Below, one piece after another: positions 11,179-50,848 of a stretch of DNA of 64,000 nucleotides. The notes beneath the pieces are model-generated. The model had not been told where the DNA came from. It did not search any database and saw nothing but the letters and a program-made list of their open reading frames with translations. How positions within the stretch are numbered: position 1 is the first letter of the stretch; the number at the start of each line of letters is the position of its first letter. The translations under genes were made by a program, and so were the position numbers. The DNA is from Microbacterium salsuginis (GTDB lineage: Bacteria > Actinomycetota > Actinomycetes > Actinomycetales > Microbacteriaceae). The stretch lies in assembly GCF_012524205.1 (NCBI RefSeq), contig NZ_JABACI010000001.1, positions 372,001 through 436,000 on the forward strand, in the 5' to 3' direction.

Positions 11179-11255
11179 GGGTTAAGACAATAGAACACAC
11201 ATTCGATGATTGGTACCCTGTACCCTCTCGGCCGGAGGAAGGATTCCGGCTACCC

Positions 11256-34984: not shown

Positions 34985-35091
34985 CAGACCTCCTCGGAGG
35001 GGGTGGAATCCGCCGATCAGACGCGGGGGGAGAGGATCACTCCCCCGGTGAGTGGTCCGCCCCCAGGGTCGATGTCTGAATTTTCTGCGGG
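34985..35091. other. Candidate cos/packaging region
   Basis: This 107-bp gap holds G-runs (GCGGGGGG), C-runs and a CACTC-N7-GAGTG inverted repeat at 35038-35054, upstream of the terminase pair. Cos sites lie beside terS in many such phages. I cannot place a cut site. Confidence 0.3.
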
Positions 35092-35647: not shown

Positions 35648-35947
35648 TCATGCCCACTGGCGGGACGGGATGCCGAGGTCGACGACGGGTGATCCGTTGC
35701 CGCGTTCGCGGTTGCATCCGGCGTGCGATGGTCGCTTGTTCTCCGGGTCTTCCTGCAGGTGGGGGTGTGTGGAGACGGGCCAGAAGTGGTCTTCCTGGAA
35801 GCGGTCGTCGTTGCCGTAGTCGTCCCATGCGGCCGCGTAGTCGATCGGGAGGTCGCAGATCCAGCAGGGCTCGTCGTTCGCCTCGCACTGGGCGCGGAAG
35901 TCGACACGCTGCTTGTGCTGCCGGCGGGTGTTGGTTCTGGCTCCCAT
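35648..35947 (-). CDS. HNH endonuclease (packaging-associated)
   Basis: A 99-residue HNH nuclease. The Cys pair CWIC, the HNH motif DHFWPVS and the following SHAGCNRERGNG with Cys and Asn are clear. HNH genes next to terminase are needed for cos cleavage and packaging in many cos-type siphoviruses. Start ATG follows a GGAG SD. Confidence 0.88.
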   Translation of the reverse strand: MGARTNTRRQHKQRVDFRAQCEANDEPCWICDLPIDYAAAWDDYGNDDRFQEDHFWPVSTHPHLQEDPENKRPSHAGCNRERGNGSPVVDLGIPSRQWA

Positions 35948-35968
35948 GGGGTCTCCGTCGGGGCTGGC

Positions 35969-36219
35969 AGGGCGCAGTTTGCGGCGATTTCAGGTTGTGC
36001 GTGCCCTGCGCGCGTATAACTCGGTCCCTTAGTAACTAATCAAAGAGCTGTGACGATTGAGAAAACTGCGCCCTACGGCGCCCTGTAGGGGTGAAACCCG
36101 CGGAATTACGCGGGAATCAGAGGGTCAGGTTGCTGTTTTGAACTGCGCCCTAACTGCGCCCTGTCGTTGAAACTGCGCCCTGGCTGATCGGGGGCAGGGC
36201 GCAGTTTCAGGGCGCAGTT
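35969..36219. repeat. Cluster of seven perfect AACTGCGCCCT 11-mers
   Basis: Forward copies start at 36064, 36141, 36152 and 36171. Reverse copies (AGGGCGCAGTT) start at 35969, 36196 and 36209. Six fall in 156 bp. Neighbouring forward and reverse copies at 36171 and 36196 make a hairpin with a 13-bp stem, and a CCCGCG-N6-CGCGGG inverted repeat lies at 36097-36114. The region between 35948 and 36250 has no gene. It is likely a protein-binding array: packaging, replication or repressor sites. Confidence 0.85.
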
Positions 36220-36250
36220 TGCGGACGGCTCGTGCGAGCGGTTCCGGTGG

Positions 36251-36463
36251 CTATACCTGGCTGCTCTGTTCTGCTGTGCGTAGGGCGTCGATGCCTTCGG
36301 TGAGCTGCGCGATCTTGGCCTGAAGGAAGGCGCGGCGCTCCTGCAGGAGTTGTCGTTGGGCGTCGGCGGTGGCGATGTCGGTGTCGAGCTGGGTGACGTC
36401 GGCGATGGCTTTCTTGCGTTCGCTTTCCAGCGACATGCGGGATGCGCTCAGTCCGTCGCTCAT
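36251..36463 (-). CDS. Small coiled-coil protein
   Basis: A 70-residue protein, nearly all coiled coil (ESERKKAIADVTQLDTDI then QLLQERRAFLQAKIAQL). ATG after GAGGAG. It sits beside the 11-mer array; it could be a binding partner or regulator, but nothing proves this. Confidence 0.6.
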   Translation of the reverse strand: MSDGLSASRMSLESERKKAIADVTQLDTDIATADAQRQLLQERRAFLQAKIAQLTEGIDALRTAEQSSQV

Positions 36464-36823
36464 TCGTCTCCTCGGTCGCGGTGGGCTGTGTGCGGGGCGC
36501 CGGCGGTGTTGGCCGGTCGGCGCCCCGCGGGGCGGTGCAGGTGCTCCTCGCCCGAGGAATCGGCGGGCGTCGTGGGAGTCCTTCGCGGCGTGCATCGTGC
36601 CCGCGTTGACACCGGCTGGCGTCCCGGCCGGGAGGAGCCTGCGGGGTGCTGCTCGTACTCCCGGCCGGGGTTGCTGTGGGGAATGACGAGAGCCCCGGGA
36701 GCGGTGGTCGCTCGGTCAGGGCTCTCGTGCTTGGTGTTGTTGCCGACACCTGTACAACCATGACGTTAGGGGCGGCAAGTACTCCTGCGTCAACTGCGAC
36801 GCGCTGATTCGTTTCGGCGTGTC
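36464..36823. other. Non-coding gap with inverted repeats
   Basis: No convincing gene in 360 bp. A 10-bp inverted repeat (acgagagccc at 36686-36695, gggctctcgt at 36719-36728) may be a terminator after the integrase. Two CCCGGCCGGG-like palindromes lie at about 36625 and 36660. Confidence 0.5.
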
Positions 36824-37987
36824 TTAACTGAGGAGCTTCGCGAGTACTGGGCCGGCTGCGGGGCCACGGTGCACTTCGTCGGCGTAGTGCGCCTTGGTGG
36901 TCTTCTCGTCTTCGTGTCCGAGTTGGTCTTTGGCTGCTGCGATGCCGAGCTCGTTGCGGATGACGGTGGCGACGGTCTTGCGGAAGCTCTTCGGCGTCAC
37001 GCCCGCGAATGGGGTGTCTCGGAGGGCGGCGCGCCAGACGGTGCGGTAGTTGTTCGGGTGGCGGAAGGTGCCGACGGCGGAGGGGAACACGAATTCGGAG
37101 AAGGATGCGACGCGGCGACGGAGGAGCATCTCGACGATGGGGTCTGGGAGCTCGAGCTCGCGGTAGCCGGCGTCTGACTTGGTGAACTCCTGGACGAAGA
37201 ACTTCTCGTCGCGGTCTTGTGCGATGGTGCGGCGGATGGTGACGACCTGGGCGGTGAGGTCGAGGACGTCCCACTGCAGTGCGAGGAGCTCGCCGGTACG
37301 GACGCCGGATCCGATGATCATGTCGGTGCTGTCGAGGAGGTCGCTGGCGCGCGGTTGTCGGCGGCGGCGGTCGCCTTCCTCGCGCGGTTCGGTGCCGGCG
37401 TCCCACATCTCGAAGCGGGTACGGATGCCGCGGATCACGTCGGCGTCGGGGGCTGCTGCGCGGCCGCGTCGCTTCGGCTTCTCCGGCGCGGGCACGTCGA
37501 CCATGGGGTTCGGTTTGACGGCGCCGTGTCGTGAGGCGAGGGCGAACATGCCGCGCAGGACGACGTGAGCGGTGGTGGCGGTGCCTGGCCCGGATGCCTT
37601 GGTGACGGCGGTGATGAACCGGTCGAGGCGTGGGACGGTGACTTCCTTGAGTCGCACGGAGCCGAGGCCGGGTTTGATGTGGTTCTGGATCGCCTTGCCG
37701 TAGATGCGCAGGGACCCCTCGGCGAGCTTGCCCTTCGAGTCGATCCACTTCTCTGCGAGCTGCTCGACGGTGGAGTCGGGTGAGAGGTCGTCGCTGGCTG
37801 GCGCGAGCTGCTGCTTCAGCGCCTTGATGAGGTTGCGTTCGGCTTCGGCGGGCGTCTTGCCTTGCCGCTGCATCGGACGGGTGCGGCCGTCGGAGCCGCG
37901 GTAGTTGGCGATCGCGGTGGGCTTCCCGTCGACGGTGGTGCGGCGGATCTTGCCCCACGTCTCGAGCTCGAGTGGCGGCCTAGGCAT
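36824..37987 (-). CDS. int: Tyrosine recombinase (integrase)
   Basis: A 387-residue phage integrase. An N-terminal arm-type DNA-binding part (about 1-55), a SAM-like core-binding domain (about 60-170) and the catalytic domain are seen. Catalytic residues: the Arg in GSGVRTGELL, the late pattern SFRKTVATVI, GHEDEKTTKAHY with the His and nucleophilic Tyr. The position usually His in HxxR is Lys here (PKSFRKT). It overlaps the ImmA-like gene by 8 nt. It would integrate into tRNA-Thr. Confidence 0.92.
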   Translation of the reverse strand: MPRPPLELETWGKIRRTTVDGKPTAIANYRGSDGRTRPMQRQGKTPAEAERNLIKALKQQLAPASDDLSPDSTVEQLAEKWIDSKGKLAEGSLRIYGKAIQNHIKPGLGSVRLKEVTVPRLDRFITAVTKASGPGTATTAHVVLRGMFALASRHGAVKPNPMVDVPAPEKPKRRGRAAAPDADVIRGIRTRFEMWDAGTEPREEGDRRRRQPRASDLLDSTDMIIGSGVRTGELLALQWDVLDLTAQVVTIRRTIAQDRDEKFFVQEFTKSDAGYRELELPDPIVEMLLRRRVASFSEFVFPSAVGTFRHPNNYRTVWRAALRDTPFAGVTPKSFRKTVATVIRNELGIAAAKDQLGHEDEKTTKAHYADEVHRGPAAGPVLAKLLS

Positions 37988-38414
37988 AGGAGCTCCTGTA
38001 GTGCCATTGGTTGATGCCCATGCGGGGGCGGACGTAAGTGACGCCGCGGAGCCGGGTGAGGCAGTGCTCCTGGTAGACGACGACCAGGTCGGGGGTGACG
38101 CGCAGCTCCTCGGCGATCGACGCGACGTCGTGCGTGATTCGCTCGAGCTCGGCGTACCGGGCGGGGTCGATCAGGAGGCGGGCTGCGAAGGCGTCGGCTG
38201 CGCGCTCGCTGCGCGGGTCTTCCTCGCAGTTGTGGCCGTGGTGGTCGTGGCCGAGCTCGTGGGCGAGGACGACGCGACGCTCGATCGGGGTGAGGTTGAA
38301 GTCATAGACCACCTGGCGGCGTTCGGCGTCGTAGTAGCCGCGGTACGGAGCCGGCAGATGTGCGACGTGCACGGTCACCCCCTGCCGCGCGGCGTACGCA
38401 ATCAGCTCACGCAA
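37980..38414 (-). CDS. ImmA/IrrE-type metallopeptidase
   Basis: A 144-residue protein with the zinc motif HELGHDHHGH and a downstream Glu-rich pair (ERAADAFAARLLI), characteristic of the ImmA/IrrE (M78) family. Such proteins cleave or inactivate phage repressors in response to signals. It lies beside the repressor and integrase, so it probably controls induction. Confidence 0.85.
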   Translation of the reverse strand: MRELIAYAARQGVTVHVAHLPAPYRGYYDAERRQVVYDFNLTPIERRVVLAHELGHDHHGHNCEEDPRSERAADAFAARLLIDPARYAELERITHDVASIAEELRVTPDLVVVYQEHCLTRLRGVTYVRPRMGINQWHYRSSYA

Positions 38415-38467
38415 TCGATCCCCCTCGAATGTGCAACGCGCACCAGCCTCCGCGAGACCGCCGACAT

Positions 38468-38971
38468 TCAGTCGGCAGGGTCCCCGCCGACGCGCGGCTT
38501 CTTGTCTGCGGCACGCTTCTCCGGCAGGTCTTTCTTGGCGATGCGACCGATGTAGGGGATCTCGTCCTCGGGCTTCGGGGCGGCCTTCTCGTCGAGCACC
38601 TCCTGGATCAGCTCGGAACTGATCGGCTCGGTGAGCGCCTCGGTGGCGCTGCCTGCTTCGATACGCCGGACGATCTCCTTGGAGAGCTCGAGGTCGGTGT
38701 ACTCATCCAACCCGTACGCCTTGGGCACGCTCGTGCTGGCGAGGTCGTCGGTGGTGAGGTAGCCCGTCGCGATGAGAGCGAATACCGGGCTCTGCCCCAG
38801 CTTCCGAGCGACGGCCACGATCGTGTCCGCGTCGGGGCGCTGAGTTTTCCCGCTGAGCCACCTGCTCACAGTGGCATCGTTCTGGCCGAGTGCGACGGCG
38901 AGGTCTGCCTGTGAGAGGTCCGGCGCTGCGCGCTTCAGGTACTCACTCCATGGTGTCGGTGATGTAGCCAC
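38468..38971 (-). CDS. Phage immunity repressor (HTH)
   Basis: A 167-residue protein. HTH XRE at residues about 15-65 (DLSQADLAVALGQNDATVS then RWLSGKTQRP). The C-terminal half (VFALIATGYLTTDDLAST) to an acidic-basic tail is probably the dimer part. Start GTG at 38971; the other frame starts overlap operators. It is divergent from a Cro-like gene, with palindromic operators between them. Confidence 0.82.
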   Translation of the reverse strand: MATSPTPWSEYLKRAAPDLSQADLAVALGQNDATVSRWLSGKTQRPDADTIVAVARKLGQSPVFALIATGYLTTDDLASTSVPKAYGLDEYTDLELSKEIVRRIEAGSATEALTEPISSELIQEVLDEKAAPKPEDEIPYIGRIAKKDLPEKRAADKKPRVGGDPAD

Positions 38972-38981
38972 ACCCCCGAGT

Positions 38982-38997
38982 ATTGCATGTCTGCAAT
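38982..38997. promoter_or_regulatory. Operator candidate ATTGCA-N4-TGCAAT
   Basis: An inverted repeat ATTGCATGTCTGCAAT right before the repressor start (11 bp upstream). A second copy of the half-sites is at 39049-39067. Both lie in the switch gap and fit repressor/Cro operators. Confidence 0.6.
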
Positions 38998-39048
38998 GAC
39001 TTTGCATCCGCGTTGCCGCAAGATTCCGCGGATTCCCGGTTAGACACG

Positions 39049-39067
39049 ATTGCAGGAGAGTTGCAAT
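39049..39067. promoter_or_regulatory. Operator candidate ATTGCA-N7-TGCAAT overlapping cro start
   Basis: Half-sites ATTGCA and TGCAAT flank the AGGAGAG SD of the rightward gene and reach into its ATG. A repressor bound here would block rightward initiation directly. Confidence 0.55.
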
Positions 39068-39365
39068 GCCGCAGGTTCTGCGTATGGTTACTCGCATGCA
39101 GGAACTTGACACCAATGCAGGAGAGCCCAAGACCTGGCTGCGCCGCGACAAGCTGAACGACCTCCGGAAGGCCAATGGCATCCAGACCGAGGCCGAGCTT
39201 GCGCGGATTATCGGCGTCTCTCCTGAGACGCTCTGGCGCGTCTCGACGCGTAAGCAGCCGGCCTCGGGCGACTTCATCGCTCGTGCCCTGATCGCGTTTC
39301 CTCACGCGTCGTTCGAGGTGCTGTTCGAGGTCACCGCCAACAAGCCGGTCGCGGCGGTGGCGTGA
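39066..39365 (+). CDS. Cro-like HTH regulator
   Basis: A 99-residue protein. HTH core at about 45-80 (TEAELARIIGVSPETLWRVS). ATG at 39066 has the SD GGAGAG; ATG at 39096 is an alternative with no SD. It is the first gene of the rightward early transcript, opposite the repressor, the usual cro position. Confidence 0.75.
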   Translation: MPQVLRMVTRMQELDTNAGEPKTWLRRDKLNDLRKANGIQTEAELARIIGVSPETLWRVSTRKQPASGDFIARALIAFPHASFEVLFEVTANKPVAAVA

Positions 39366-39559
39366 TGTCCGGTCGGTGGCTGACGCCTGTTCAGGTGTCG
39401 GAGCGGACCGGGTTCTCGGTCAAGACGCTCGCGAACTGGCGGTCGAAGACTCGGGCGGGTGAGCCGACCGGTCCCGCGTTCGTGAAGGCCGGTGCACTCA
39501 TCCGCTACGACTCGGACGCCGTCGCCGAGTGGCAGCAGACGTTCGAGGCGGTGGCCTGA
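39365..39559 (+). CDS. xis: Excisionase-like MerR/HTH protein
   Basis: A 64-residue protein (MSGRWLTPVQVSERTGFSVK) with a winged helix typical of excisionase-family HTH_17 domains. ATG overlaps the previous stop. It may act with the integrase in excision or as a DNA-binding early regulator. Confidence 0.7.
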   Translation: MSGRWLTPVQVSERTGFSVKTLANWRSKTRAGEPTGPAFVKAGALIRYDSDAVAEWQQTFEAVA

Positions 39560-39843
39560 TGCGCGCGCTGCTCGCCTGGATCGCGTTCGTCGCCGGCGTC
39601 CTGTTCATCGTCGTCGACGTCGTCCGCCTCAGCATCACGGGCCTGTTCCTGCTCGGCGTCGTGCTGCTAGTCGTCTGGGCCTGGGGCATCGACGCCTTCC
39701 GGGCCAGCTTCTGGATCGCCCCGATCGACGGATCGCACCCCGACGCGCTCGGGTCCCTCGACTTACTCGAGCGTCACGGCGTCCGCCGTCCCGACGTATC
39801 CGCTCCCGCCGGGGACGCCAACTCCCCCGACACCGCGACGTAA
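39559..39843 (+). CDS. Two-span membrane protein
   Basis: A 94-residue protein with two hydrophobic segments (about 2-22 and 29-47, LLAWIAFVAGVLFIVVDVVR and LFLLGVVLLVVWAWGI) and a soluble tail. ATG overlaps the previous stop (TGATG). Early membrane proteins in this position often exclude superinfecting phage; here that is a guess. Confidence 0.6.
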   Translation: MRALLAWIAFVAGVLFIVVDVVRLSITGLFLLGVVLLVVWAWGIDAFRASFWIAPIDGSHPDALGSLDLLERHGVRRPDVSAPAGDANSPDTAT

Positions 39844-39930
39844 TCCCGACCGTCGCCGCGTCTCCGGCGGGCCTCACCCAGACCCCATCCCCCACCACCT
39901 CACCGAATCACCGATCTAACAGGAGTCAGC

Positions 39931-41271
39931 ATGTCCACCACCGCCATCGTGCGCGTCGATCCGAAGACACTGCTCATCGGTCCCAACGTTCGCAAGGAGG
40001 TCACGCTCCGCAAGGAGTTCGTGGCATCCGTCCAGCAGCACGGCATCCTCGTGCCGATCATCGCCCAGCAGACCGCTGACGGTCTTGAGGTTGTCGACGG
40101 GCAGATGCGCACTCTCGCTGCCGTCGACGCTGACCTCACCGAAGTCCCGGTGTTCGTGCAGCCGGCGATCGTCGACGAGGCGTCCCGCATTGTCGAGCAG
40201 ATCGTCGTCAACGAGGACCGGGCGGGCCTGACCACGACCGATCACGTTGCGGCGATCGCGCAGCTCGCTCTCGACTTCAAGCTGCCTGCTGCCGAGATCG
40301 CGAAGCGCACGGGTGCGACGAAGACTCAGGTGGCCGCGGTCGTCACGGCCTCGAAGTCCCCGCACGCTACCGCCGCGATCGGCCAGGAAGGCGTGACGCT
40401 TGAGCTCGCCGCCAAGATCGCCGAGGCGGGGCTCAGCAAAGCCGACACGAAGCGGGTCATCGAGGCGCGGTGGAACAAGGACCACGCGTTGCAGCAGATC
40501 CTGGACGAGCGCGCGGCCGCGGCACGTACGAAGGAGCTCGAGAAGGAGACGAAGGCCGCCGGTGTCGCAATCGCGGCAAAGCCGTCGACGGGCGACTACT
40601 ACGCCAAGGAGAAGAACAAGCACCTGTTCCTCGACCAGCTCGTTGACAGGGCCACCGACAAACCGATCGCCCTCGCGGAGCACGCCGACTGCCCTGGCCA
40701 CGCTGCCTACGTCGGCGTGCGCGGCTACAACGGAAAGGTCGAGGTCCACTACCTCTGCACCGACCCTGCCAAGAACGGCCACCGCGATAAGAACCGCGCC
40801 GCCCCGACGAAGCTCACTCCGGCCGAGCGTGAGCAGAAGCAGCTCGAGAAGGCCCGTGCCGAGCAGTGGCTCTCAGTCACGACGGTGCGCACGACGTGGG
40901 TCCGCGAGCAGCTCCTCACCCGCCGCACGATGCCGACCGGGTGGGACCTGTTCCTGCTACACGACCTCACCGAGACGCACGCACGAGCCTGGGGGCAGTG
41001 GCAGAAGCTGGCGCTCGAGCTGTTGCAGCGCCCCGCAGCCGAGGACGACTGGTATCCCGCGCGCACCCTCGCGGCGTGGGCGGCCGAGAAGCCAATCAAC
41101 GCGGCCCGCGCCGCTCTGGCTTCGGTAATCGCTCGTCACGAGGCGGAGCTCGGTGTGAAGGGCGGCTGGTCGAAGGTCTCGCCCGTCTATCTGCGGCTGC
41201 TCGCCGAGTGGGGCTACGGCCTTAGCGAGATCGAGCAGGCGATCGTCGACGCCGCGGGAGCGGACGCGTGA
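39931..41271 (+). CDS. ParB/Srx-domain protein (early)
   Basis: A 446-residue protein. N-terminal ParB-like nuclease domain (about 8-95; VVDGQMRTLAAV carries the family's Gly/Arg site), then an HTH stretch (LPAAEIAKRTGATKTQ). The rest is charged and helical, with a Cys/His part (HADCPGHA, YLCTDPAKNGH). SD ACAGGAG. In actinophages such proteins are probable nucleases or partition factors. Confidence 0.82.
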   Translation: MSTTAIVRVDPKTLLIGPNVRKEVTLRKEFVASVQQHGILVPIIAQQTADGLEVVDGQMRTLAAVDADLTEVPVFVQPAIVDEASRIVEQIVVNEDRAGLTTTDHVAAIAQLALDFKLPAAEIAKRTGATKTQVAAVVTASKSPHATAAIGQEGVTLELAAKIAEAGLSKADTKRVIEARWNKDHALQQILDERAAAARTKELEKETKAAGVAIAAKPSTGDYYAKEKNKHLFLDQLVDRATDKPIALAEHADCPGHAAYVGVRGYNGKVEVHYLCTDPAKNGHRDKNRAAPTKLTPAEREQKQLEKARAEQWLSVTTVRTTWVREQLLTRRTMPTGWDLFLLHDLTETHARAWGQWQKLALELLQRPAAEDDWYPARTLAAWAAEKPINAARAALASVIARHEAELGVKGGWSKVSPVYLRLLAEWGYGLSEIEQAIVDAAGADA

Positions 41272-41462
41272 GCCGGCTGCAGCTGCGCACACCGGCGGTG
41301 CTCCGCCGCCGCCCGTTCCACGCACGGCGCGCCGTCGCTCACGACGCACCCATGGAGTACTCGACGAAGCCGGTCGCGCCCCGCTGGCTCGTGATCGGTA
41401 CCGGCATCCTCGGCGCCGGCGTCCTCGTCGAGATCCTCATCGGTCTGGCGGTGCTCGCATGA
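41268..41462 (+). CDS. Small single-span membrane protein
   Basis: A 64-residue protein with a basic N-terminus and one hydrophobic C-terminal segment (LVIGTGILGAGVLVEILIGL). GTG overlaps the ParB-like stop, while an internal ATG at MEYSTKP is an alternative. Overlap with both neighbours suggests real translation. Confidence 0.5.
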   Translation: MSRLQLRTPAVLRRRPFHARRAVAHDAPMEYSTKPVAPRWLVIGTGILGAGVLVEILIGLAVLA

Positions 41463-41995
41463 TCGCGGTGGGCCTGGACCCGTCGCTGACCTGCACCGGC
41501 GTCGCGGTGATCGACACCGAGGGCGGCGCTCTCACTCGGCGCATCGTGTCGCCAAACCTCGGGACCACGCTGCTCGCTCGCCGTGAGCGTCTCCGCCGCG
41601 CGATCGCCGGCGTCCTCAACTCGGTGCCCGCTCGCGTCGACGTGACGCTCATCGAGGTCCCGAACTCGACAAAGCAGCACGGCGCGCACGGCGAGCGGAT
41701 GGCCCTCTACTGGTGGCTCGTCGACCAGATGTTCGCCCGCGGCCCCGTCGTCGAGGTTGCCCCTCCGAGCCGCGCGAAGCTCTCGACCGGCAACGGCCGC
41801 GCGAAGAAGGGCGACGTCGTCGCGTCCCTCCGCGCCGCATTCCCGAATGCCCACATCCCCGACGACAACGTCGCGGACGCTCTCGGCCTCGCGTGGGCCG
41901 GCGCCCGCTGGGCCGGCATCCCCACACCCGCCTATCTCCCCGGCCAAGAGGAGGCGCACGCGCGCCTCGCCTGGCCCGCCGGAACCACCCACTGA
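41459..41995 (+). CDS. RuvC-like Holliday junction resolvase
   Basis: A 178-residue RNase H-fold nuclease. The acidic site residues are visible: Asp in GLDPSLTCTG, Glu in TLIEVPNS, and the DD-type DDNVADALGLA near the end. It resolves branched DNA during replication and packaging. Overlaps the preceding gene by 4 nt. Confidence 0.85.
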   Translation: MIAVGLDPSLTCTGVAVIDTEGGALTRRIVSPNLGTTLLARRERLRRAIAGVLNSVPARVDVTLIEVPNSTKQHGAHGERMALYWWLVDQMFARGPVVEVAPPSRAKLSTGNGRAKKGDVVASLRAAFPNAHIPDDNVADALGLAWAGARWAGIPTPAYLPGQEEAHARLAWPAGTTH

Positions 41996-42009
41996 GAGGA
42001 ATCACCCAC

Positions 42010-42627
42010 ATGGTCAAGCTCGCCCCGTCGCTCCCGAAGGAGTACGACGACAACGGCCTCGAGTCCAACACTCGTCACCTGCTCAACATCTATCCGAAGC
42101 AGGAGTACGTGCCCGTCGTCGCGCTCGTGCGCACGAAGGAAATCACGCAGACCGAGAACTTCGAGCGCGTCCCGAAGGTGGAGATCGTCCACATCGAGAT
42201 CGCGGTCGACGCCGACGACCAAGAGGACGTGCGCGACCTCATCCAGCGACTCCACGACGGTCGTGTGCAGCACATCAAGCAACCCCTGGATCTGCCCGAC
42301 ACCGACCCGGAGCCCGCGACACCGCTCGAACTGGAGGCGAGCGTCGGCGAGTACTCGATCGAGATCTCCGACGAAGCGCCCGGGGTGTTCGGCCTCTCGC
42401 TCGTTGCGGCGTCAGGCGCCCACGTGCTCGACCGTCACGCCCTACCTCGTGCCGAGTACGGGGAGATCCTGCCCGGTGCGCACACCCTGCATCTGCTCGA
42501 GCCTGCGCTCGGGGAGCTAGTGCGGCAGCTGATTGGCGAGTACGAGCAGGGCTTCGCCGTCAGCGAGGACGACGTCGTTGTGGACGCCGAGCTCGTCGAC
42601 GAGACCACCACCACTGAGGAGGACTGA
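42010..42627 (+). CDS. Early hypothetical protein
   Basis: A 205-residue protein (MVKLAPSLPKEYDDNGLESN). Mixed alpha/beta sequence with acidic Thr/Glu tail. SD AGAGGAAT. No recognised family; it precedes recombination genes. Confidence 0.65.
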   Translation: MVKLAPSLPKEYDDNGLESNTRHLLNIYPKQEYVPVVALVRTKEITQTENFERVPKVEIVHIEIAVDADDQEDVRDLIQRLHDGRVQHIKQPLDLPDTDPEPATPLELEASVGEYSIEISDEAPGVFGLSLVAASGAHVLDRHALPRAEYGEILPGAHTLHLLEPALGELVRQLIGEYEQGFAVSEDDVVVDAELVDETTTTEED

Positions 42628-42630
42628 CCC

Positions 42631-43020
42631 ATGAGCACGCCCGCACCCATCACGCCCATTCGCCCCGACCAGCCCGCGCGTCAGTCCGACGCGATCATGC
42701 AGCGTCTGATCGAACGGCGCGCGACGATCAAGGCCGATCAGGAGATCCTCGCCGGCGAGCTCGAGGCGATCGACGGGCAGCTGATCGAGCTGCTCGGCGG
42801 CGAAGTCGGCACCCATGAGATCGCCGGCACGAAGGTCGAGATCCGCGAGTACTCGCGCACCGACTACGCCGCGCTCGAGAAGAAGTACCCCGCCGCTGAG
42901 TACCCGCAGCTGTACACCACCAAGGCGTCGCTCAACCAGGACGTCGTGAAGAGGCAGTTCGCACCGGCCGCGCTCGACGCGTTCAAGGTGCGCGGCAAGA
43001 AGTCGGTGGTGGTGAAGTGA
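42631..43020 (+). CDS. Early hypothetical protein with coiled coil
   Basis: A 129-residue protein. A helical segment (about 25-60, MQRLIERRATIKADQEILAG) is followed by a small globular domain (GTHEIAGTKVEIREYSRTDY). It is probably related to Gam-like or DUF-type phage helpers, unproven. Overlaps the next gene by GTGA. Confidence 0.55.
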   Translation: MSTPAPITPIRPDQPARQSDAIMQRLIERRATIKADQEILAGELEAIDGQLIELLGGEVGTHEIAGTKVEIREYSRTDYAALEKKYPAAEYPQLYTTKASLNQDVVKRQFAPAALDAFKVRGKKSVVVK

Positions 43021-43328
43021 GCAGCGGCCAGGACACGGTCCGCGCGACCGTCTACCTGCAAGTGCAGCCCGAGTACTCGTGGCAGGCCAAGCAGTACCGA
43101 CAGTTCGATACGCCGAGCGCCATCCAGGGCGCGAAGGTAGTCGGCTCGACGCAGGGCAAGTCGCAGAAGCCGAAGCCGGGAACGGTTGAGGTGAAGATCA
43201 TGGTCGAGCTGCCCAAGGGCGCGTTCCTGCCGCTGCGCCCGGAGGCGATCGTCGTGATCCCCGAGTCGCTCACCCAGCCCCACCCGGTCACCGTGGAGGC
43301 CGAAGACGCGAACGAGTCGCAGGCATGA
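43017..43328 (+). CDS. Early hypothetical protein (103 aa)
   Basis: A 103-residue protein, beta-rich (VRATVYLQVQPEYSW, GTVEVKIMVELPKGAF). GTG start overlapping previous stop; ends overlapping the Cas4-like gene. Likely partner of one of the two neighbours. Confidence 0.55.
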   Translation: MSSGQDTVRATVYLQVQPEYSWQAKQYRQFDTPSAIQGAKVVGSTQGKSQKPKPGTVEVKIMVELPKGAFLPLRPEAIVVIPESLTQPHPVTVEAEDANESQA

Positions 43329-44287
43329 GCTCGGTGGAGGACCTCTACCTCGGGGTCATCAAGGACGGCATCGCACGGCATCCGCGGTCGCTGCAGAAGC
43401 GCATCGGTCCCAGCGAGATCGGCCGACCCTGCGACAGGTGGATCCTCCACAAGCTCAACGGCGACGGCGAGCCCGACCGCGGTCCCGCCTGGAAGCCGGC
43501 GGTCGGCACCGCGGTCCACGACCAGCTCGAGCAGTGGTTCGACGCCGCGAACCGTGGCGGCGGCGAGGTCGACCGCACCGAGTGGGTGACCGAGTGGCAG
43601 GTGACAGTCGGGCAGATCGGCGGCCAGGACATCGACGGCCACTCTGACCTGTTCCACGTTCCGACCGGGACCGTCATCGACCACAAGATCGTCGGCCCGA
43701 AGCAGCTCTCCAAGTACCGGCTCCACGGACCCAGCCAGCAGTACCGGGTACAGGCACACCTCTACGGCAAGGGGTTCACCGCCGACGGCGGATGGGGCCC
43801 GTGCCGCAACGTGGCGATCGCGTTCCTCCCCCGCGACGGCGAGCTCCACAACACCTACTTCTGGTCGGAGCCGTACGACGCGCACCTCGCGGCCGAGGCG
43901 ATGCTCCGCGCGAACCGACTGTGGACGATGCTCACCGTTGTCGGCATCGAGGCGGCGCTCGCCGCGTCGCCGCTGTGCGATGACGAGTGGTGCACCTGGT
44001 GCAAGACGGAGAAACGCGCCCAGCAGCGGGCGGCCGGCGGGTCGCTGTTCGACATCGGCGAGCTCCGCGTCGTGCCCGAGCCCGAGGTTGCGCCGCGGCC
44101 GCTCGCCGCGCTCCCCACGGCCCCTGCGCGGTGCACCGCCTGCGGTGAGCCGCTCTCCCCGATCGCCGCGATGGGCGGCTTCACCACCCACCCGACGTGC
44201 GACCCCGAGACCCCGGCCCCGACGCCGGTTCCCGCGACACCGCAGCCAGCGGTGCTCGCACCCGTCACCAACCTGTTCGACCGCTGA
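43325..44287 (+). CDS. Cas4-like/RecB-family exonuclease
   Basis: A 320-residue PD-(D/E)XK nuclease. The motif DIDGHSDLF, VIDHKIVGP gives Asp, Asp-His-Lys metal residues. Cys36 (GRPCDRW) and the C-terminal CDDEWCTWC provide four Cys expected for an iron-sulfur cluster. It would process DNA ends in recombination. A Pro-rich tail with CTACGE forms a small extra module. Confidence 0.85.
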   Translation: MSSVEDLYLGVIKDGIARHPRSLQKRIGPSEIGRPCDRWILHKLNGDGEPDRGPAWKPAVGTAVHDQLEQWFDAANRGGGEVDRTEWVTEWQVTVGQIGGQDIDGHSDLFHVPTGTVIDHKIVGPKQLSKYRLHGPSQQYRVQAHLYGKGFTADGGWGPCRNVAIAFLPRDGELHNTYFWSEPYDAHLAAEAMLRANRLWTMLTVVGIEAALAASPLCDDEWCTWCKTEKRAQQRAAGGSLFDIGELRVVPEPEVAPRPLAALPTAPARCTACGEPLSPIAAMGGFTTHPTCDPETPAPTPVPATPQPAVLAPVTNLFDR

Positions 44288-44309
44288 CAAGACCAACCAA
44301 GGAGAAGAC

Positions 44310-45002
44310 ATGTCCCTTTTCGATTCCAGCAACAAGGGCCTCAAGTTCGACCAGATCGGGGTGTCGCATAGCGGCACCGTGAAGTCGGCGCCGCGCGAGC
44401 GGCAGCAGACGAAGTTCGGTAGCCAGGAGCCGGACTTCTGGCCCAACGGTGACCCGAAGATGCAGATCCTCGTCGACCTGCAGACGAACGAGCGCGAGGA
44501 CCCGAACGACGACGGCACCCGCACCCTCTACGTCGCCTCGAAGAACATGAAGCGCGCGATCAGCGACGCGATCCGCGCTGCGGGCGCGTCCGACATCCTG
44601 CCTGGCGGGGTGCTGACCGTGCAGTACGTGGGCAACGACCCGGCGTCGGCGAACCCGGCGAACCCGGCGAAGCTGTACGCCGTCCAGTACACGGCTCCAA
44701 CGTCGGCGTTCGTGCAGCCTGCGGCCGCGGCACCCGCGGCTCAGCCGGTGCAGCAGTCGCCGACGTTCGTGCCCACGACGGCGAATGTCGCGCCGCAGCA
44801 GGCCGTGCAGCAGCCGGTCCCCCAACAGCAGGCGCCGTTCGCGGCTCCGGCTCAGCAGCCGCCCCACCCGAGCGGGCTCACTCAGGACCAGATCGCGCAA
44901 CTGCAGCAGCTGCGTGCCGCACAGATCCCGGAGGCGACGATCGCCACCGCAATCGGTGCGACCGCGCAACAGATCGCGGTCCTCGACGCCACCCCGTTCT
45001 GA
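44310..45002 (+). CDS. Probable phage ssDNA-binding protein
   Basis: A 230-residue protein. The N-terminal 125 residues (LKFDQIGVSHSGTVKSAPRE, MQILVDLQTNER) fit the ssDNA-binding-like proteins often found after Cas4 in actinophages, and the C-terminal part is Pro/Gln/Ala-rich with a terminal acidic-hydrophobic tip. SD GGAGAAG. Identification rests on pattern and location. Confidence 0.6.
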   Translation: MSLFDSSNKGLKFDQIGVSHSGTVKSAPRERQQTKFGSQEPDFWPNGDPKMQILVDLQTNEREDPNDDGTRTLYVASKNMKRAISDAIRAAGASDILPGGVLTVQYVGNDPASANPANPAKLYAVQYTAPTSAFVQPAAAAPAAQPVQQSPTFVPTTANVAPQQAVQQPVPQQQAPFAAPAQQPPHPSGLTQDQIAQLQQLRAAQIPEATIATAIGATAQQIAVLDATPF

Positions 45003-45105
45003 CCCGACCAGCCGCGCCGCCACCGCCGCGCGGCCTGCAGGGGCCTCCCGAGCCCCACCAGCCCTGCCACGCGGTGTGCAGCCTGTTCGAGCCAGGCCAG
45101 GGCAC

Positions 45106-45330
45106 ATGACACAACACACCTTCGAACCGAGCATCGCCACACACCCTGCCCGCTGCCCAGACTGCTTCAGCTTCATCCAGCCGGGCGACCAGATCACCCG
45201 CGGCAACGCCTTCAGCGAATGGCGGCATCTCCGATGCCCTCTCACGAAGTTCGACTTCGACGCCGCGGCTGTGTGCCCCTCGTGCTTCACGGTCCGCGCC
45301 AGCAGCGGAGCGTGCGCGTGCGCAGAGTGA
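45106..45330 (+). CDS. Cys-rich small protein
   Basis: A 74-residue protein with CPDC, a lone Cys, then CPSC and a CACAE end. Probably zinc-binding. The ATG is preceded by a weak SD. Confidence 0.6.
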   Translation: MTQHTFEPSIATHPARCPDCFSFIQPGDQITRGNAFSEWRHLRCPLTKFDFDAAAVCPSCFTVRASSGACACAE

Positions 45331-45335
45331 TGGGA

Positions 45336-45560
45336 TCAGTCAGGCAGTTCCACCCAGCTGACTGTCGAGGCGTGAGTGATCAGGAAGGTCACGGTGCCCC
45401 CGGTGCCAGCGCGCTCGAGCCGCAGCGGAGCGGGCAGCTTGCCCGTCGCGATGTTCTCCAGCTGACTCCTCACGGCCTCCCACTTGTGCGGATCCGAGAA
45501 GTCGAACCGGGACTGCGATTCGCCCTCGCCGATGTAGAGGTGCGCCACGTTCTTCGCCAT
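45336..45560 (-). CDS. Lone minus-strand small protein in the early operon
   Basis: A 74-residue protein (MAKNVAHLYIGEGESQSRFD) on the opposite strand to all neighbours. The stop is 5 nt from the end of the plus-strand gene. Sequence is plausible globular alpha/beta (FDFSDPHKWEAVRSQLENI). SD is weak. No family was recognised. Confidence 0.6.
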   Translation of the reverse strand: MAKNVAHLYIGEGESQSRFDFSDPHKWEAVRSQLENIATGKLPAPLRLERAGTGGTVTFLITHASTVSWVELPD

Positions 45561-45619
45561 GCCTCGAAGTGTAAGCGGCGCGATCGAGCGCGGACCATCC
45601 ATCACCAGAAAGTCTCAGC

Positions 45620-48061
45620 ATGACTGCCCTCCTCGCTACGGCACACGAGCTCCACGCCGCAGGGCTGTCTGTTGTTCCCGTCGCTGCCGACGGGACGAAG
45701 CGGCCGCGTGTCTCGTGGAAGAACTACACCTCGAAGCCGGCCGACACAGACCAGCTGCAGTCCTGGTTCGGCGACGTCGTCGAGCAGGGCATCGGCCTCG
45801 TCACCGGGTACGGCGACGTCGAGATGCTCGAGGTCGAAGGCAAGGCGATGGGGTCGATGGGCGACGTCGTCGAGCTGCTCGACGGGACAGGCCTCCGCCC
45901 CGTCTATGACCGGCTCGTCTCCGGCTGGTCCGAGCAGTCACCGTCCGGCGGGCTGCACCTGTTCTACCGGCTCGACGGCGGCGAGGTCCCCGGGAACACG
46001 AAGGTCGCGCAGCAGCCGAAAGACGAACCGCCCTACCGTGACACGCTCGCCGAGACGCGCGGCACAGGCGGGTTCGTCGTGCTCGCCCCGTCGGCCGGGA
46101 AGGTGCACCCGACTGGCCGCGCCTGGATCCGCCTCGCAGGTGGCCCAGCGTCGCTGCCGACGATCACCCGCGAGGAACGGGACCAGCTGCACGCCGTCGT
46201 GCACGCCGCGCTCGACACCATGCCGCCCGAGGAAGCCGCGGCCGGCCCGGTCGACGCGAAGTGGTCGACGACGTACCACGCGGCCGCTGGCGACATCACA
46301 CCCGGTGATGACTTCGAGGCGAAGACGGACTGGTCGGAGATCCTCGTCGGCTGGACCCTCGTCATGACCCGCGGCACGACGAAGTACTGGCGGCGCCCGG
46401 GCAAGAACGACGGGTTCAGCGCGACCACCGGGCACGCTTCGGACCGCGATCGCCTGTACGTGTTCACGTCGTCGACGGCGTTCGAGCCGGAGATCCCGTA
46501 CACGAAGTTCGGGGCGTACGCGCTGCTCAACCACCGTGGCGATCACGCGGCCGCGGCCAAGGCCCTCGTCGACGCCGGCCACGGGTACCGGGCGCCGCGG
46601 GAACTGGCGCCCGGGTCTCGGACGACGTCCACGGGCACGCAGATCTCCGCGCTCGGCAACCCGGTGGCCGCGACAGCACCGGCCGTGTCGATCGGCTCCG
46701 ACAGTGCAGACCTCACCGACGACGGGAACGCACGCCTCCTGGTCGCCGAGTACTCCGGCGAGCTCCGCTACGTCCCGGATGCCGGGAAGTGGGTCACGTG
46801 GGACGGCACCCGCTGGGCGTGGCATCCGGACGACGGACCCGCGATCGAGGCGGCGCGTGACGTGATCCGCCGCATCCCGACCGACAACGTCCAGTTGAAG
46901 GCGTGGCGGCTGAAGTCGATGCGGGCACGGGCGATCGCCGATGCCGTGCGCCTGGCGCGTGCGACGCCGGCGATGCGGGTCCCGGCCTCGCAGTTCGACC
47001 GGCACCCGTGGCAGCTGAACACCCCTGGTGGGGTGGTCGACCTCCGCACGGGGGCGATCGCCGCGGCGACGCCGGCACTGTTCCACTCGAAGCAGACATC
47101 CGTCGCCCCGGATGCGTCGATGCCGACGCCGCTGTGGAACAAGTTCCTGCAGACCACGTTCCAGTCGAACGCGCCGCTCGAGCGGTACATGCAGCGCCTC
47201 GCCGGGCTGATGTTCATCGGCGAAGTGATCGAGCATGTTCTCCCGTTCGCGCATGGCGCCGGGGGCAACGGCAAGGGCGTGTTCGCCGAGGTGATGCTCG
47301 GTGTCGCGGGCGACTACGGCACGTCGGCACCGCAGGGGTTTCTCGTCGTGGGCCCCACCAAGCACCCAACCGAGCTCGCGATGTTGCAGGGTCGACGTCT
47401 CGTCGTCACGTCCGAGATCAACGAGGACACGAAGTTCGACGAGGCGAAGATGAAGGCCCTCACCGGTGGTGACACGATCACTGCCCGCTTCATGGGGAAG
47501 GACTTCTTCGACTTCAACCCGTCGCACACGTTCCTCCTCCTCGGCAACAGCCAGCCGAAGGTCGAGACGGGCGGCGACTCGGTGTGGCGCCGCCTCCGTC
47601 TGATCCCTTTCACGCACTCGGTGCCCGAGGCCGACAAGATCGAGAACCTGCAGCAGCGGCTCGTCGACGAGGAAGGGCCGGGGATCCTCGCGTGGATCAT
47701 CCAGGGCGCCGTCGACTACGCCACAGACGGCCTCCGCACGCCTGACGTGGTCCTCGCCGCGACCGACACGTACCGGGCCGAAGAGGACCACCTCGGCCGG
47801 TTCGTGGAGGACCGGTGCCGCGTCGGCGGCGGCGACATGGTGCGGGTGGAGATGAGCGAGCTGCGCCGCGCGTACGACGCGTGGTGCAAGGAGCAGCACG
47901 AGGACGCCGTGACGACCACCGCATTCGGCCGGCAGCTGAAGCAGCGGTTCGACATCGGCACAGCGAAGTCCAACGGTCGCCGGTTCTACACGAACGTCAG
48001 CCTCTACGCGCCCGAGACAGTCGACGACGGCGACGCCGAGCTCCGGTGGGATCAGCGATGA
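45620..48061 (+). CDS. Primase-polymerase/SF3 helicase (replication protein)
   Basis: An 813-residue protein. N-terminal prim-pol domain (about 1-200: ELHAAGLSVVPVAADGTKRP, SGGLHLFYR). The usual acidic DxD appears as EVE (MLEVEGKAMG). C-terminal D5/P4-type SF3 ATPase: Walker A GAGGNGKG (about 548), Walker B-like VTSEINED (about 595), sensor HTFLLLGNSQP. It starts replication by priming and unwinding. It replaces a separate helicase and primase pair. Confidence 0.9.
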   Translation: MTALLATAHELHAAGLSVVPVAADGTKRPRVSWKNYTSKPADTDQLQSWFGDVVEQGIGLVTGYGDVEMLEVEGKAMGSMGDVVELLDGTGLRPVYDRLVSGWSEQSPSGGLHLFYRLDGGEVPGNTKVAQQPKDEPPYRDTLAETRGTGGFVVLAPSAGKVHPTGRAWIRLAGGPASLPTITREERDQLHAVVHAALDTMPPEEAAAGPVDAKWSTTYHAAAGDITPGDDFEAKTDWSEILVGWTLVMTRGTTKYWRRPGKNDGFSATTGHASDRDRLYVFTSSTAFEPEIPYTKFGAYALLNHRGDHAAAAKALVDAGHGYRAPRELAPGSRTTSTGTQISALGNPVAATAPAVSIGSDSADLTDDGNARLLVAEYSGELRYVPDAGKWVTWDGTRWAWHPDDGPAIEAARDVIRRIPTDNVQLKAWRLKSMRARAIADAVRLARATPAMRVPASQFDRHPWQLNTPGGVVDLRTGAIAAATPALFHSKQTSVAPDASMPTPLWNKFLQTTFQSNAPLERYMQRLAGLMFIGEVIEHVLPFAHGAGGNGKGVFAEVMLGVAGDYGTSAPQGFLVVGPTKHPTELAMLQGRRLVVTSEINEDTKFDEAKMKALTGGDTITARFMGKDFFDFNPSHTFLLLGNSQPKVETGGDSVWRRLRLIPFTHSVPEADKIENLQQRLVDEEGPGILAWIIQGAVDYATDGLRTPDVVLAATDTYRAEEDHLGRFVEDRCRVGGGDMVRVEMSELRRAYDAWCKEQHEDAVTTTAFGRQLKQRFDIGTAKSNGRRFYTNVSLYAPETVDDGDAELRWDQR

Positions 48062-48402
48062 CCGCCACCACGCCTCTCTACGCCGCCTGCACGCGCTGCG
48101 GCGGCCGCGTCCTCGAGGTGCGCTGGGACTGGCACCAGGACGTGCTGATCGGCGACCCGCAGCTCGAGCCGGTGTCGCTCGACTACCAGCAGATCACCGC
48201 TTGCGTGATCGCCGGCATCCCGCTGTGGCAGGTCCACGAGCACGCCGGCCGCACCGTCACGAGCCACCGAACCGCCTACTGGCCCAAGCGCAAGGTCCCC
48301 GGCCACGTCGCCCCTGAGCACGGGTGCGGCCGCGTGTGGGATGCGTTCCCGCTCGAGCTCGCACCTGACCCCGCATCCATCCCCGACACCTGCCCCTTCT
48401 GA
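48058..48402 (+). CDS. Small protein with zinc-binding motifs
   Basis: A 114-residue protein. CTRCG near the N-terminus and CGRV/CPF at the C-terminus make a split zinc site, with an HTH-like middle (DYQQITACVIAGIPLW). ATG overlaps the replication gene (ATGA). Confidence 0.6.
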   Translation: MTATTPLYAACTRCGGRVLEVRWDWHQDVLIGDPQLEPVSLDYQQITACVIAGIPLWQVHEHAGRTVTSHRTAYWPKRKVPGHVAPEHGCGRVWDAFPLELAPDPASIPDTCPF

Positions 48403-48413
48403 AGGAGATCACA

Positions 48414-48776
48414 ATGAGCACCAGCATCACGCGCGTCACCGAGCGCACGATCGTCGCCGTCGACCTCGAGGACGACGGGTCGATCGAGATCCGCACCGGC
48501 GGCAGCTCGGGCTACCGCGAGACGCTCACCGCCGAGCAGGCGCGTCAGCTCGCGGCCGGGCTGCTCGAGCTCGCCGACGAGTCCGAGAAGTACTTCGCCG
48601 AGACCGCGGCCGCGGCGATCGCCGTCACGGTGCACGCGGCGCCCATCGGCACCGCAGACGTCACCGCCTGCTGTGGCGTCCTCCCGTGGCACCTTCCCTC
48701 GATCGACCGCATCACCAGCACGGATTCCGAGGTCACGTGCACATGGGCCGCGACCGCGCGAGCAGAATGCGCATGA
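48414..48776 (+). CDS. Hypothetical protein (120 aa)
   Basis: A 120-residue protein with beta start (RVTERTIVAVDLEDDGSIEI) and helical middle (LTAEQARQLAAGLLELADES). Preceded by AAGGAGA. It overlaps the next gene by ATGA. Unknown role. Confidence 0.55.
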   Translation: MSTSITRVTERTIVAVDLEDDGSIEIRTGGSSGYRETLTAEQARQLAAGLLELADESEKYFAETAAAAIAVTVHAAPIGTADVTACCGVLPWHLPSIDRITSTDSEVTCTWAATARAECA

Positions 48777-49864: not shown

Positions 49865-50013
49865 GCCCGAAGCCGTTCCGGCCCGCCTTCTCCCCTGAAC
49901 CGCGGCCCCGCCCAGCGCCCACCACCCGGTGCAAGCGGTCGTGCTGCTGGTCTCCCTACGGCCACATCCCCCGGCCGGAGTGCACCTGTCACCCGCGAGG
50001 CGGCGTGTCGTGA
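49861..50013 (+). CDS. Cys-rich microprotein (50 aa)
   Basis: A 50-residue Pro/Arg-rich peptide with CKRSCCW and CTCH. Start overlaps the previous stop (ATGA). Confidence 0.5.
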   Translation: MSPKPFRPAFSPEPRPRPAPTTRCKRSCCWSPYGHIPRPECTCHPRGGVS

Positions 50014-50633: not shown

Positions 50634-50848
50634 ACGAGCCGCTGATCTGTCCGGCGTGCGAGAAGCCGATCGGACCGGGCGAGCGCCGAGTGTCCTGGTT
50701 CACCCGCAACGCCGACTTGAAGACGACAGAGCGGGGCGCGGTGCACCTGGCCTGCATCCTGCCCAGCCACACGGATCGGAGCACGCCGCGCGACCTCTGC
50801 GGGCGGCGGCATCCAGGACCTGGCACGCCGGGCGTGTGCGACCGATGA
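50630..50848 (+). CDS. Zinc-finger-like small protein
   Basis: A 72-residue protein with CPACEKPIGPGE and HLACILPSH, and a later Cys pair. ATGA overlap at both ends. Looks like a small zinc finger. Confidence 0.55.
   Translation: MNEPLICPACEKPIGPGERRVSWFTRNADLKTTERGAVHLACILPSHTDRSTPRDLCGRRHPGPGTPGVCDR

What the first reader, a model, noticed from the sequence alone, without database searches (positions are those of the whole stretch)
35948..36250. Seven perfect 11-bp repeats in both orientations beside the packaging genes
AACTGCGCCCT occurs exactly seven times within 251 bp (four forward, three reverse), with hairpins formed by opposed copies and a separate CCCGCG-N6-CGCGGG palindrome, in a gene-free region between the HNH and a small coiled-coil gene. 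A random 11-mer would not recur like this. It is not explained by any gene, promoter or known cos motif that I can name. It may be a packaging, origin, or repressor-binding (stoperator-like) array.
Basis: seen in the sequence. Interest (0 to 1): 0.8.

Follow-up and report, generated by a model that had tools for sequence, protein, structure and literature searches.

The report
Prophage replication origin with iteron array
The repeated 11-letter DNA words in this bacterial prophage are most likely the place where the virus starts copying its DNA, recognised by its own primase-helicase; related phages keep the same layout but swap the word, apparently together with that enzyme.

Summary
In detail: AACTGCGCCCT occurs exactly seven times in 35969-36219, four forward and three reverse, with two other exact copies in the 4.33-Mb genome. 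Relatives show an eighth position, degenerate here.

The array is not at cos: the cos-like motif lies 0.9 kb away, beyond the HNH gene. It is not attP: the prophage is bounded by tRNA-Thr repeats. It does not follow terminase, HNH, integrase or repressor. It follows a Prim-Pol/D5 (SF3) primase-helicase at 45620-48061: all ten non-identical stretches with at least 75% identity, the window included, carry an array. In many more distant homologues the array sits just 3' of the primase gene.

The layout is largely kept while the repeats switch together: AACTGCGCCCT, ATATCGCGCCCC, CGCGCCCTG, AACGGTCACCC. The protein's C-terminal domain is predicted to fold like the phage P4 origin-binding domain (1ka8, Z 8.9). 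In all ten stretches the weakest 50-bp duplex lies inside the array.

Best reading: an iteron-type replication origin that works like P4 or SaPI origins. Binding and origin activity were not tested.

The parts
36209..36219 (-). Iteron 1 (numbered in the direction of HNH transcription), exact AACTGCGCCCT
   Evidence: aligned position conserved
36196..36206 (-). Iteron 2, exact
36171..36181 (+). Iteron 3, exact
36152..36162 (+). Iteron 4, exact
36141..36151 (+). Iteron 5, exact
36097..36114 (.). Palindrome CCCGCG-N6-CGCGGG between iterons 5 and 6, kept in some relatives only; role unknown
   Evidence: compared
36075..36084 (+). Iteron 6, degenerate here (ACGGCGCCCT), better kept in class A relatives
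36064..36074 (+). Iteron 7, exact
36015..36067 (.). Putative DNA-unwinding element: weakest 50-bp duplex (from 36015) and lowest-GC 40-mer (36028-36067, 35% GC) of the 44-kb prophage; contains the conserved block 36023-36050
   Evidence: conservation
35969..35979 (-). Iteron 8, exact
45620..48061 (+). Prim-Pol / D5_N / DUF5906 primase-helicase (813 aa), proposed initiator
   Evidence: Pfam; co-occurrence
47675..48058 (+). C-terminal region of the primase-helicase (residues 686-813) with predicted P4-origin-binding-domain-like winged helix; proposed iteron reader
   Evidence: model; fold comparison
35648..35947 (-). HNH endonuclease gene next to the array; neighbour, not judged part of the origin
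   Evidence: PHROGs; 3' side carries the cos-like motif

Best explanation
The array is the lytic replication origin of this Microbacterium prophage. Eight 11-bp iterons, in both orientations at conserved spacing, are bound by the C-terminal winged helix of the phage's own primase-helicase (Prim-Pol + SF3/D5 helicase). Binding assembles helicase rings around the A+T-rich block (36015-36067), which melts. The helicase then unwinds and the Prim-Pol domain primes. Shown: the array, its conserved layout, the concerted motif switch, its association with this primase family, and the computed weakness of the A+T block. Predicted: the winged-helix fold. Inferred: binding, melting and origin activity.
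For: (1) Co-occurrence: of 17 records searched, the primase is found in 8 of 9 array carriers (the ninth is a 16-kb fragment; G369 and G374 are duplicates) and in 0 of 8 others. A primase-only search of viral contigs gave 18 loci; the 10 at 78-100% identity, which include the window's own record and one duplicate, all have arrays. By one criterion (at least 7 copies of a 9-mer, up to 1 mismatch, within 300 bp, both orientations), 22 of 28 primase-bearing stretches pass and 0 of 56 control loci, 443,556 bases. (2) Prediction test: four further chromosomal homologues (G190, G700, G444, G566) each have an array; G190 duplicates L133, so three are new. (3) In distant homologues the array starts near the 3' end of the primase gene: 60, 495 and 107 nt beyond the end of the protein match in L156, L157 and L160; -4 to 13 nt from the stop codon in L137-L140, L143, L144 and L152; -26 to 46 nt in 4 of 10 further phages. 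(4) Motif switch on a largely unchanged backbone. (5) Predicted fold: 1ka8, Phage P4 Origin-Binding Domain, Z 8.9, rmsd 2.8, 79 residues; profile match to the 7ola 'DNA primase' over 458-795, E 2.3e-13. (6) Residue 767, in the predicted recognition helix, is T in 5 of 5 class A and Q in 5 of 5 other proteins. (7) The weakest 50-bp duplex lies in the array in the window prophage and in 9 of 9 relatives tested.
Against: No binding or replication experiment. In the window the array lies 9.4 kb from the primase gene. Eileen, Bridgette and Shambre1 (43-46% identity) give no array above shuffle level; 6 of 10 more distant phages have none beside the primase. The array criterion is not specific by itself: four carrier stretches also have a second, simple-sequence region with 7 or 8 copies (L126, L136, L142, L152). 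Many carriers were first found through the array or the A+T block and not through the primase. GC skew shows no sign change at the array in three relatives. Six other window genes are also matched in all seven carrier stretches compared (37980-38414, 41713-42627, 42631-43020, 43325-44287, 44785-45330, 49929-50633), so co-occurrence alone does not single out the primase. Class A is one clade, and residue 767 is only one of 11 class-separating positions.
Confidence: 0.85

Rival explanations
1. The array is part of the packaging site (cosB/pac-like), bound by terminase or HNH.
For: It lies directly upstream of HNH in several relatives, and HNH is next to the genome end in related virions.
Against: The annotated cos of BFK20 lies 3' of HNH, and a similar motif lies at about 35020-35062 in the window and in L047-L049 (by eye). 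G028 has TerL 81% and HNH 87% identical but no array upstream of HNH. HNH is 80% identical between window and L126 although the motif differs, and 47% between window and L122 although it is the same. L127 carries the array with a terminase only 25% identical over part of its length.
Confidence: 0.03
2. It is an operator or enhancer array that controls the late (HNH-terminase) transcript or the replication module, bound by a regulator of that module and not an origin.
For: It lies upstream of HNH; the conserved block could hold promoter elements; several other genes of the module co-occur with it.
Against: No sigma-70-like promoter was found at 35900-36500 (other promoter types are not covered). 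In distant relatives the array is 3' of the primase gene, beside different genes. The predicted reader domain is of the origin-binding type.
Confidence: 0.08
3. attP arm-type sites of the nearby tyrosine integrase.
For: The integrase gene is 0.6 kb away; arm-site arrays of about 250 bp are known for other tyrosine integrases (recalled).
Against: The prophage is bounded by a 38-nt tRNA-Thr repeat at 8207-8244 and 52115-52152 and the array is unsplit. Two records with integrases 74-75% identical (L030, L031) show no array in the loci held and no primase in the record.
Confidence: 0.02
4. Repressor (stoperator-like) sites.
For: Short asymmetric repeated sites in a temperate phage.
Against: All seven sites sit in one cluster and not across the prophage; the window repressor was detected in 1 of 7 carrier stretches compared.
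Confidence: 0.02

Closest known systems
Phage P4 origin (ori) and alpha protein
   Same: One polypeptide with primase, helicase and a C-terminal winged helix; origin made of repeats (PMC4234260, part 1 of section 18 read); the predicted C-terminal fold matches 1ka8.
   Different: P4 alpha has a TOPRIM primase (PMC4234260, section 18); here it is Prim-Pol (PF09250). P4's second element crr (recalled) has no counterpart found. The repeat sequence differs (recalled).
SaPI origin and Rep helicase; SCCmec Cch2
   Same: The C-terminal domain recognises an iteron origin directly downstream of the helicase gene (passages of PMC7581432, citing Ubeda 2007); the window primase matches PDB 7ola, called 'DNA primase', which I recall as SaPI5 Rep.
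   Different: In the window group the array is not beside the initiator gene (9.4 kb away in the window). The element is an actinobacterial prophage. The site geometry is its own.
pRN1 ORF904 replicon
   Same: Prim-Pol + SF3 helicase + winged helix, with the proposed origin 3' of the gene (abstract and part 1 of section 18 of PMC4234260).
   Different: pRN1 is proposed to use a stem-loop and not iterons, and that paper suggests the same for related phage proteins (BIP-1).

Membership tests
Iteron-type origin with a self-encoded primase-helicase initiator | Several copies of a short sequence in a compact non-coding region | tested here: met
   Seven exact plus one degenerate copy in 251 bp
Iteron-type origin with a self-encoded primase-helicase initiator | Adjacent A+T-rich, easily melted stretch | tested here: met
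   Weakest 50-bp duplex of the prophage, and likewise in 9 of 9 relatives; core CAGCTCTTTGA and AGTNACTA in all 11 aligned arrays. With 60-bp windows a G+C-poorer stretch exists at 11152
Iteron-type origin with a self-encoded primase-helicase initiator | Initiator encoded by the same element | tested here: met
   Prim-Pol/D5_N protein at 45620-48061; co-occurrence. That it is the initiator is inferred
Iteron-type origin with a self-encoded primase-helicase initiator | Initiator binds the iterons | not testable with these tools
   Inferred from motif switching and predicted fold
Iteron-type origin with a self-encoded primase-helicase initiator | Replication starts there | not testable with these tools
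   GC skew was inconclusive
P4 alpha/ori replicon | C-terminal P4-type origin-binding winged helix | tested here: met
   Model matches 1ka8_A, Z 8.9, rmsd 2.8, 79 aligned; Foldseek alone had no match at E 0.001 or less; a shared fold does not prove function
P4 alpha/ori replicon | TOPRIM-type primase domain | tested here: not met
   The N-terminus is Prim-Pol PF09250, E 3e-15
P4 alpha/ori replicon | Second repeat region crr elsewhere in the genome (recalled) | tested here: not met
   No copy of the 11-mer with up to one mismatch elsewhere in the prophage; best other region 6 copies of an unrelated word
SaPI-type Rep/ori | Origin directly downstream of the rep gene | tested here: not met
   9.4 kb away in the window; met in many distant homologues
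cos/cosB site | Contains or abuts the virion end | tested here: not met
   cos-like motif at about 35020-35062, 3' of HNH; virion ends themselves not mapped
attP arm sites | Array split between attL and attR in the prophage | tested here: not met
   Array intact; att repeats at tRNA-Thr
Stoperators | Sites scattered through the phage genome | tested here: not met
   7 of 9 genomic copies lie in one 251-bp cluster, the other 2 on other contigs

The most novel reading that the evidence does not exclude
A widespread family of actinophage origins in which one Prim-Pol/SF3 initiator reads about eight iterons in conserved geometry, and in which the iteron sequence and the recognition helix switch together while the scaffold (spacing, melting block) stays. 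In the window group the origin has been uncoupled from its initiator gene, and the early module occurs on either side of the fixed origin-HNH-cos block. This would allow origins to be read from sequence for many phages and a recognition code to be worked out.
Probability: 0.6. Interest if true: 0.7.

Novelty: new variant of a known kind. Interest (0 to 1): 0.6.

Why it matters
As far as I know, origins of most actinobacterial phages are unmapped, and origins for Prim-Pol/SF3 initiators have been argued to be stem-loops (PMC4234260). A natural series of four motif classes on one largely unchanged scaffold, each paired with its own C-terminal domain, makes origin recognition by this enzyme family directly testable. 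It also suggests a simple way to predict origins: look for an inverted-and-direct iteron array just 3' of the primase gene or beside the terminal HNH gene. The array could serve as a minimal replicon or origin marker for Microbacterium genetics.

Tried and rejected
Packaging site, attP and repressor array: see the rivals. HNH as reader: rejected because its similarity does not follow the motif. ParB-like protein (39931-41271) as reader: not detected in L126 or L127, which carry the array. RuvC: not detected in L127. Repressor: detected only in L126. The 70-aa ORF: found only in the window's own viral record (close relatives only) and in none of 7 carrier stretches. The 507-aa HTH gene (48341-49864): matched in 3 of 7 stretches. 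Not excluded by co-occurrence: six other genes listed in the Against line.

GC skew at the array in G369, G370 and G371: rightward genes have a 4-fold-site skew of -0.23 to -0.26 left of it and -0.05 to -0.12 right of it; there is no sign change and the phages are related, so inconclusive. Terminator-like site at 36068-36081: one found against 0.7 expected. Array sequence against the phage collection: no meaningful match. Pattern GGGCGCAGTNNGGGCGCAGT in 366 congeneric genomes: 2 hits, the window and G124. Three further viral contigs hit by the same pattern (L071-L073) show no HNH match and no eight-site array by eye. Of 45 contigs hit by the A+T-block pattern, seven are array carriers (L058, L060, L061, L062, L063, L082, L105); an eighth, L106, lies on the same contig as L133. 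The rest were not examined singly, except 18 used as controls.

Control set: 56 loci, top counts 3 (2 loci), 4 (24), 5 (29), 6 (1). They are not all independent (several pairs come from one genome or record), average 7.9 kb, 18 are unrelated viral contigs, L015 comes from a carrier genome (its array lies outside the locus), and some are fragments. Left out of controls and carriers: terminase loci L019, L020, L022-L028, L046 (starts inside what looks like a class A array) and L054. Left out as duplicates or other flanks: L128, L145, L154, L155, L158, L159; L153 was kept although it duplicates L133, and L139/L140 have identical spacing. Exact A+T test: 30-bp and 60-bp windows have G+C-poorer places outside the array (near 11152-11182), 40-bp windows and 50-bp duplex energy do not.

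Absence from print rests only on searches of an open-access library, seen as listings. Papers seen: PMC7581432, PMC7157519, PMC5862659 and PMC8628076 (passages), PMC4234260 (abstract and part 1 of section 18).

Full report
WHAT IS THERE. The seven exact copies of AACTGCGCCCT are real and clustered; no 11-mer recurs more than three times within 260 bp in 20 shuffled windows. Only two more exact copies exist in the 4.33-Mb genome. The window is a stretch of a bacterial chromosome (G000). Its genus includes G124, whose contig 11 has the length and array of NZ_CDWI01000011.1, Microbacterium sp. 3J1. It holds a prophage of about 44 kb bounded by a 38-nt, 97% identical repeat of the tRNA-Thr 3' end at 8207-8244 and 52115-52152. 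The array lies between HNH and a 70-aa ORF without family.

ARCHITECTURE. Relatives show that the feature is larger than the seven repeats. In the direction of HNH transcription it is: two iterons pointing one way, three pointing the other way (starts 19 and 11 bp apart), a palindrome, a pair 67 and 10 bp further on, an A+T-rich block, and a last inverted iteron about 97 bp on. In the window the sixth iteron is degenerate (36075-36084). The outer copies vary in relatives (for example AACCGCGCCCT), and L133 departs from the spacing. The block's core, CAGCTCTTTGA and AGTNACTA, is in all 11 aligned arrays, with a few extra bases in between in L047, L136 and L146.

UNSTABLE DUPLEX. The weakest 50-bp duplex of the 44-kb prophage starts at 36015, inside the array; the next weakest place is near 11174. 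In 9 of 9 relatives tested (L122-L127, L133, L136, L146) the weakest 50-bp duplex of the whole stretch held (15.8 to 22.5 kb) is also inside the array. By G+C alone the array is lowest for 40-bp windows but not for 30- or 60-bp windows.

NOT COS. In Corynebacterium phage BFK20 the 13-nt 3' protruding cos is annotated 80 bp beyond the HNH gene, and in two further phages the record ends shortly after HNH. A similar motif (GGGGGCGGACCAC...CCGGGGGAGTGGTCCTCTC) lies 3' of HNH at about 35020-35062 in the window and in L047, L048 and L049; the comparison was by eye. The array is thus about 0.9 kb from the presumed cos, on the other side of HNH.

THE MOTIF SWITCHES, THE SCAFFOLD STAYS. L126/L082 and L127/L105 have the same layout and the same A+T block, but their repeats read ATATCGCGCCCC(C) or close to it. 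L133 and L136 have CGCGCCCTG and L146 has (AA)CGGTCACCC. Such concerted change of about eight sites points to one sequence-specific protein in trans. HNH does not fit: it is 80% identical between window and L126 (different motif) and 47% between window and L122 (same motif). G028 shares TerL (81%) and HNH (87%) and has no array upstream of HNH.

THE PARTNER. The primase-helicase at 45620-48061 (Prim-Pol, D5_N, DUF5906) was found in 8 of 9 array carriers, the ninth being a 16-kb fragment, and in 0 of 8 other records. Absence of the array in those eight was checked only in the loci held, and two of them are short fragments (24 and 10 kb). Three pairs are duplicates: G369/G374, L133/L153 and L136/L145. 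Several carriers had been found through the array or the A+T block; the unbiased search is, by protein alone, in which all 10 loci at 78-100% (window's own record and one duplicate included) have arrays. Ten non-identical stretches at 75% identity or more, the window included, have 7 to 10 copies. Six other genes of the window are also matched in all seven carrier stretches compared. Of these the exonuclease is as similar to the window's in L127 (80%, class B) as in class A (78-79%), whereas the primase separates the classes (83-85% to class A, 77-79% to class B); this is weak evidence on seven stretches, two of them duplicates.

PREDICTION TEST. Four chromosomal homologues found afterwards by protein search alone (E 1e-100 or less; 3 of 361 genus and 4 of 398 family genomes, the window's own in both and G124 in the first; identities 78, 60, 57 and 56%) each had an array. 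The 78% one duplicates L133, and the 56% one is split into two matches. G566 keeps nearly the window's spacing (13, 20, 31, 20, 11, 66, 10) with motif AACTGGGCA.

GENERALITY AND MISSES. By the criterion, 22 of 28 primase-bearing stretches pass (some duplicates included). Of the six others, RootBeer (L148) and Karkharias (L151) have six copies at 336 and 75 nt beyond the primase gene; L141 has six exact copies directly 3' of the gene, although its top score lies elsewhere; Eileen, Bridgette and Shambre1 have none above shuffle level. L142's array is 1.65 kb beyond the gene. I then took 10 of 40 records listed from down a ranking of 760. Arrays start within -26 to 46 nt of the primase 3' end in SgtBeansprout, LeMond, Patt and Lactobacillus phage JNU_P9. 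There are none beside the primase in Sycamore, Lilbooboo, VroomVroom, Albright, Brahms and OscarSo, which are 27-33% identical (JNU_P9 is 30%); the first five carry a phage DNA polymerase I gene. OscarSo passes the count with repeats within the primase coding sequence and about 1 kb beyond it, which I did not accept. Control: 0 of 56 loci (443,556 bases) reach 7 copies, but four carriers have a second region of simple G+C-rich words with 7 or 8 copies, so the count alone is not proof.

THE READING DOMAIN. A model of residues 686-813 (pLDDT above 90 over the winged helix) matches 1ka8, the Phage P4 Origin-Binding Domain (Z 8.9, rmsd 2.8, 79 residues), below two RFX DNA-binding domains (Z 10.4 and 10.3); Foldseek alone gave no match with E of 0.001 or less. 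Pox_D5 matches below its cut-off. The protein profile matches viral primase C962R entries (E 1.3e-14 at best, positions 444-761) and PDB 7ola (E 2.3e-13, positions 458-795); I recall 7ola as the SaPI5 primase-helicase. Across ten carriers the recognition-helix stretch (761-778) drops from 92% identity within class A to 69% between class A and the others; the C-terminal tail drops as far. Residue 767 is T in all 5 class A and Q in all 5 other proteins; ten other positions separate the classes too, so this is suggestive only.

MECHANISM. I infer that the protein binds the iterons through this domain, loads as rings on the array, melts 36015-36067 and primes. This is how P4 alpha and the SaPI Rep proteins are described in outline (PMC4234260, part 1 of section 18; PMC7581432, passages). 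PMC4234260 argued for stem-loops with Prim-Pol/SF3/winged-helix proteins, so the iteron arrays found here are a departure from that proposal. I did not find these actinophage arrays described in searches; most subscription papers are not held.

REARRANGEMENT. The array lies 3.8 to 5.4 kb beyond the 3' end of the primase gene in L122-L125, but on its 5' side in the window, L126, L127, L133, L136 and L146. In the window, L126 and L127 the ImmA-like gene lies between array and primase. The array is next to HNH in the array-bearing records where HNH was matched; in L127 the next ORF looks HNH-like only by eye. The window's array is therefore 9.4 kb from its initiator gene, unlike most distant homologues.

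Noticed in passing
8069-8263: Two perfect 65-bp tandem copies and a third partial one, each containing the tRNA-Thr 3' end, lie at the left prophage border, possibly traces of repeated integration or of stacked att sites.
   Followed up: no
36097-36114: The palindrome between iterons 5 and 6 changes on both arms in some relatives (CCGCGTGATCACGCGG, CCCCGTAATTCCGGGG) but is broken or absent in L049, L133 and L146; role unexplained.
   Followed up: partly
36824-52017: The early module lies in the opposite orientation to the array-HNH block compared with L122-L125, so the integrase sits mid-prophage, far from the tRNA-Thr att sites.
   Followed up: partly
35020-35062: Conserved GC-rich motif 3' of HNH that resembles the annotated cos region of BFK20.
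   Followed up: partly
36251-36463: 70-aa ORF without close relatives in viral contigs other than the window's own record.
   Followed up: yes
L047:1405-2766; L048:3006-4352; L049:3084-4379: A gene that looks like a ParB-domain DNA methyltransferase (by eye from the translation) lies between the cos-like motif and the terminase genes in class A relatives.
   Followed up: no
11152-11230: Second weakest, A+T-rich stretch of the prophage, without an iteron array.
   Followed up: no
L137:6521-6865 and L138:5464-5808: Long tandem repeats (24-bp unit about 15 times; 12-bp unit about 29 times) in phage contigs that carry a distant primase.
   Followed up: no
53356-53414: msiK RNA motif (RF01747, 63.6 bits) in chromosomal DNA just outside the prophage.
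   Followed up: no
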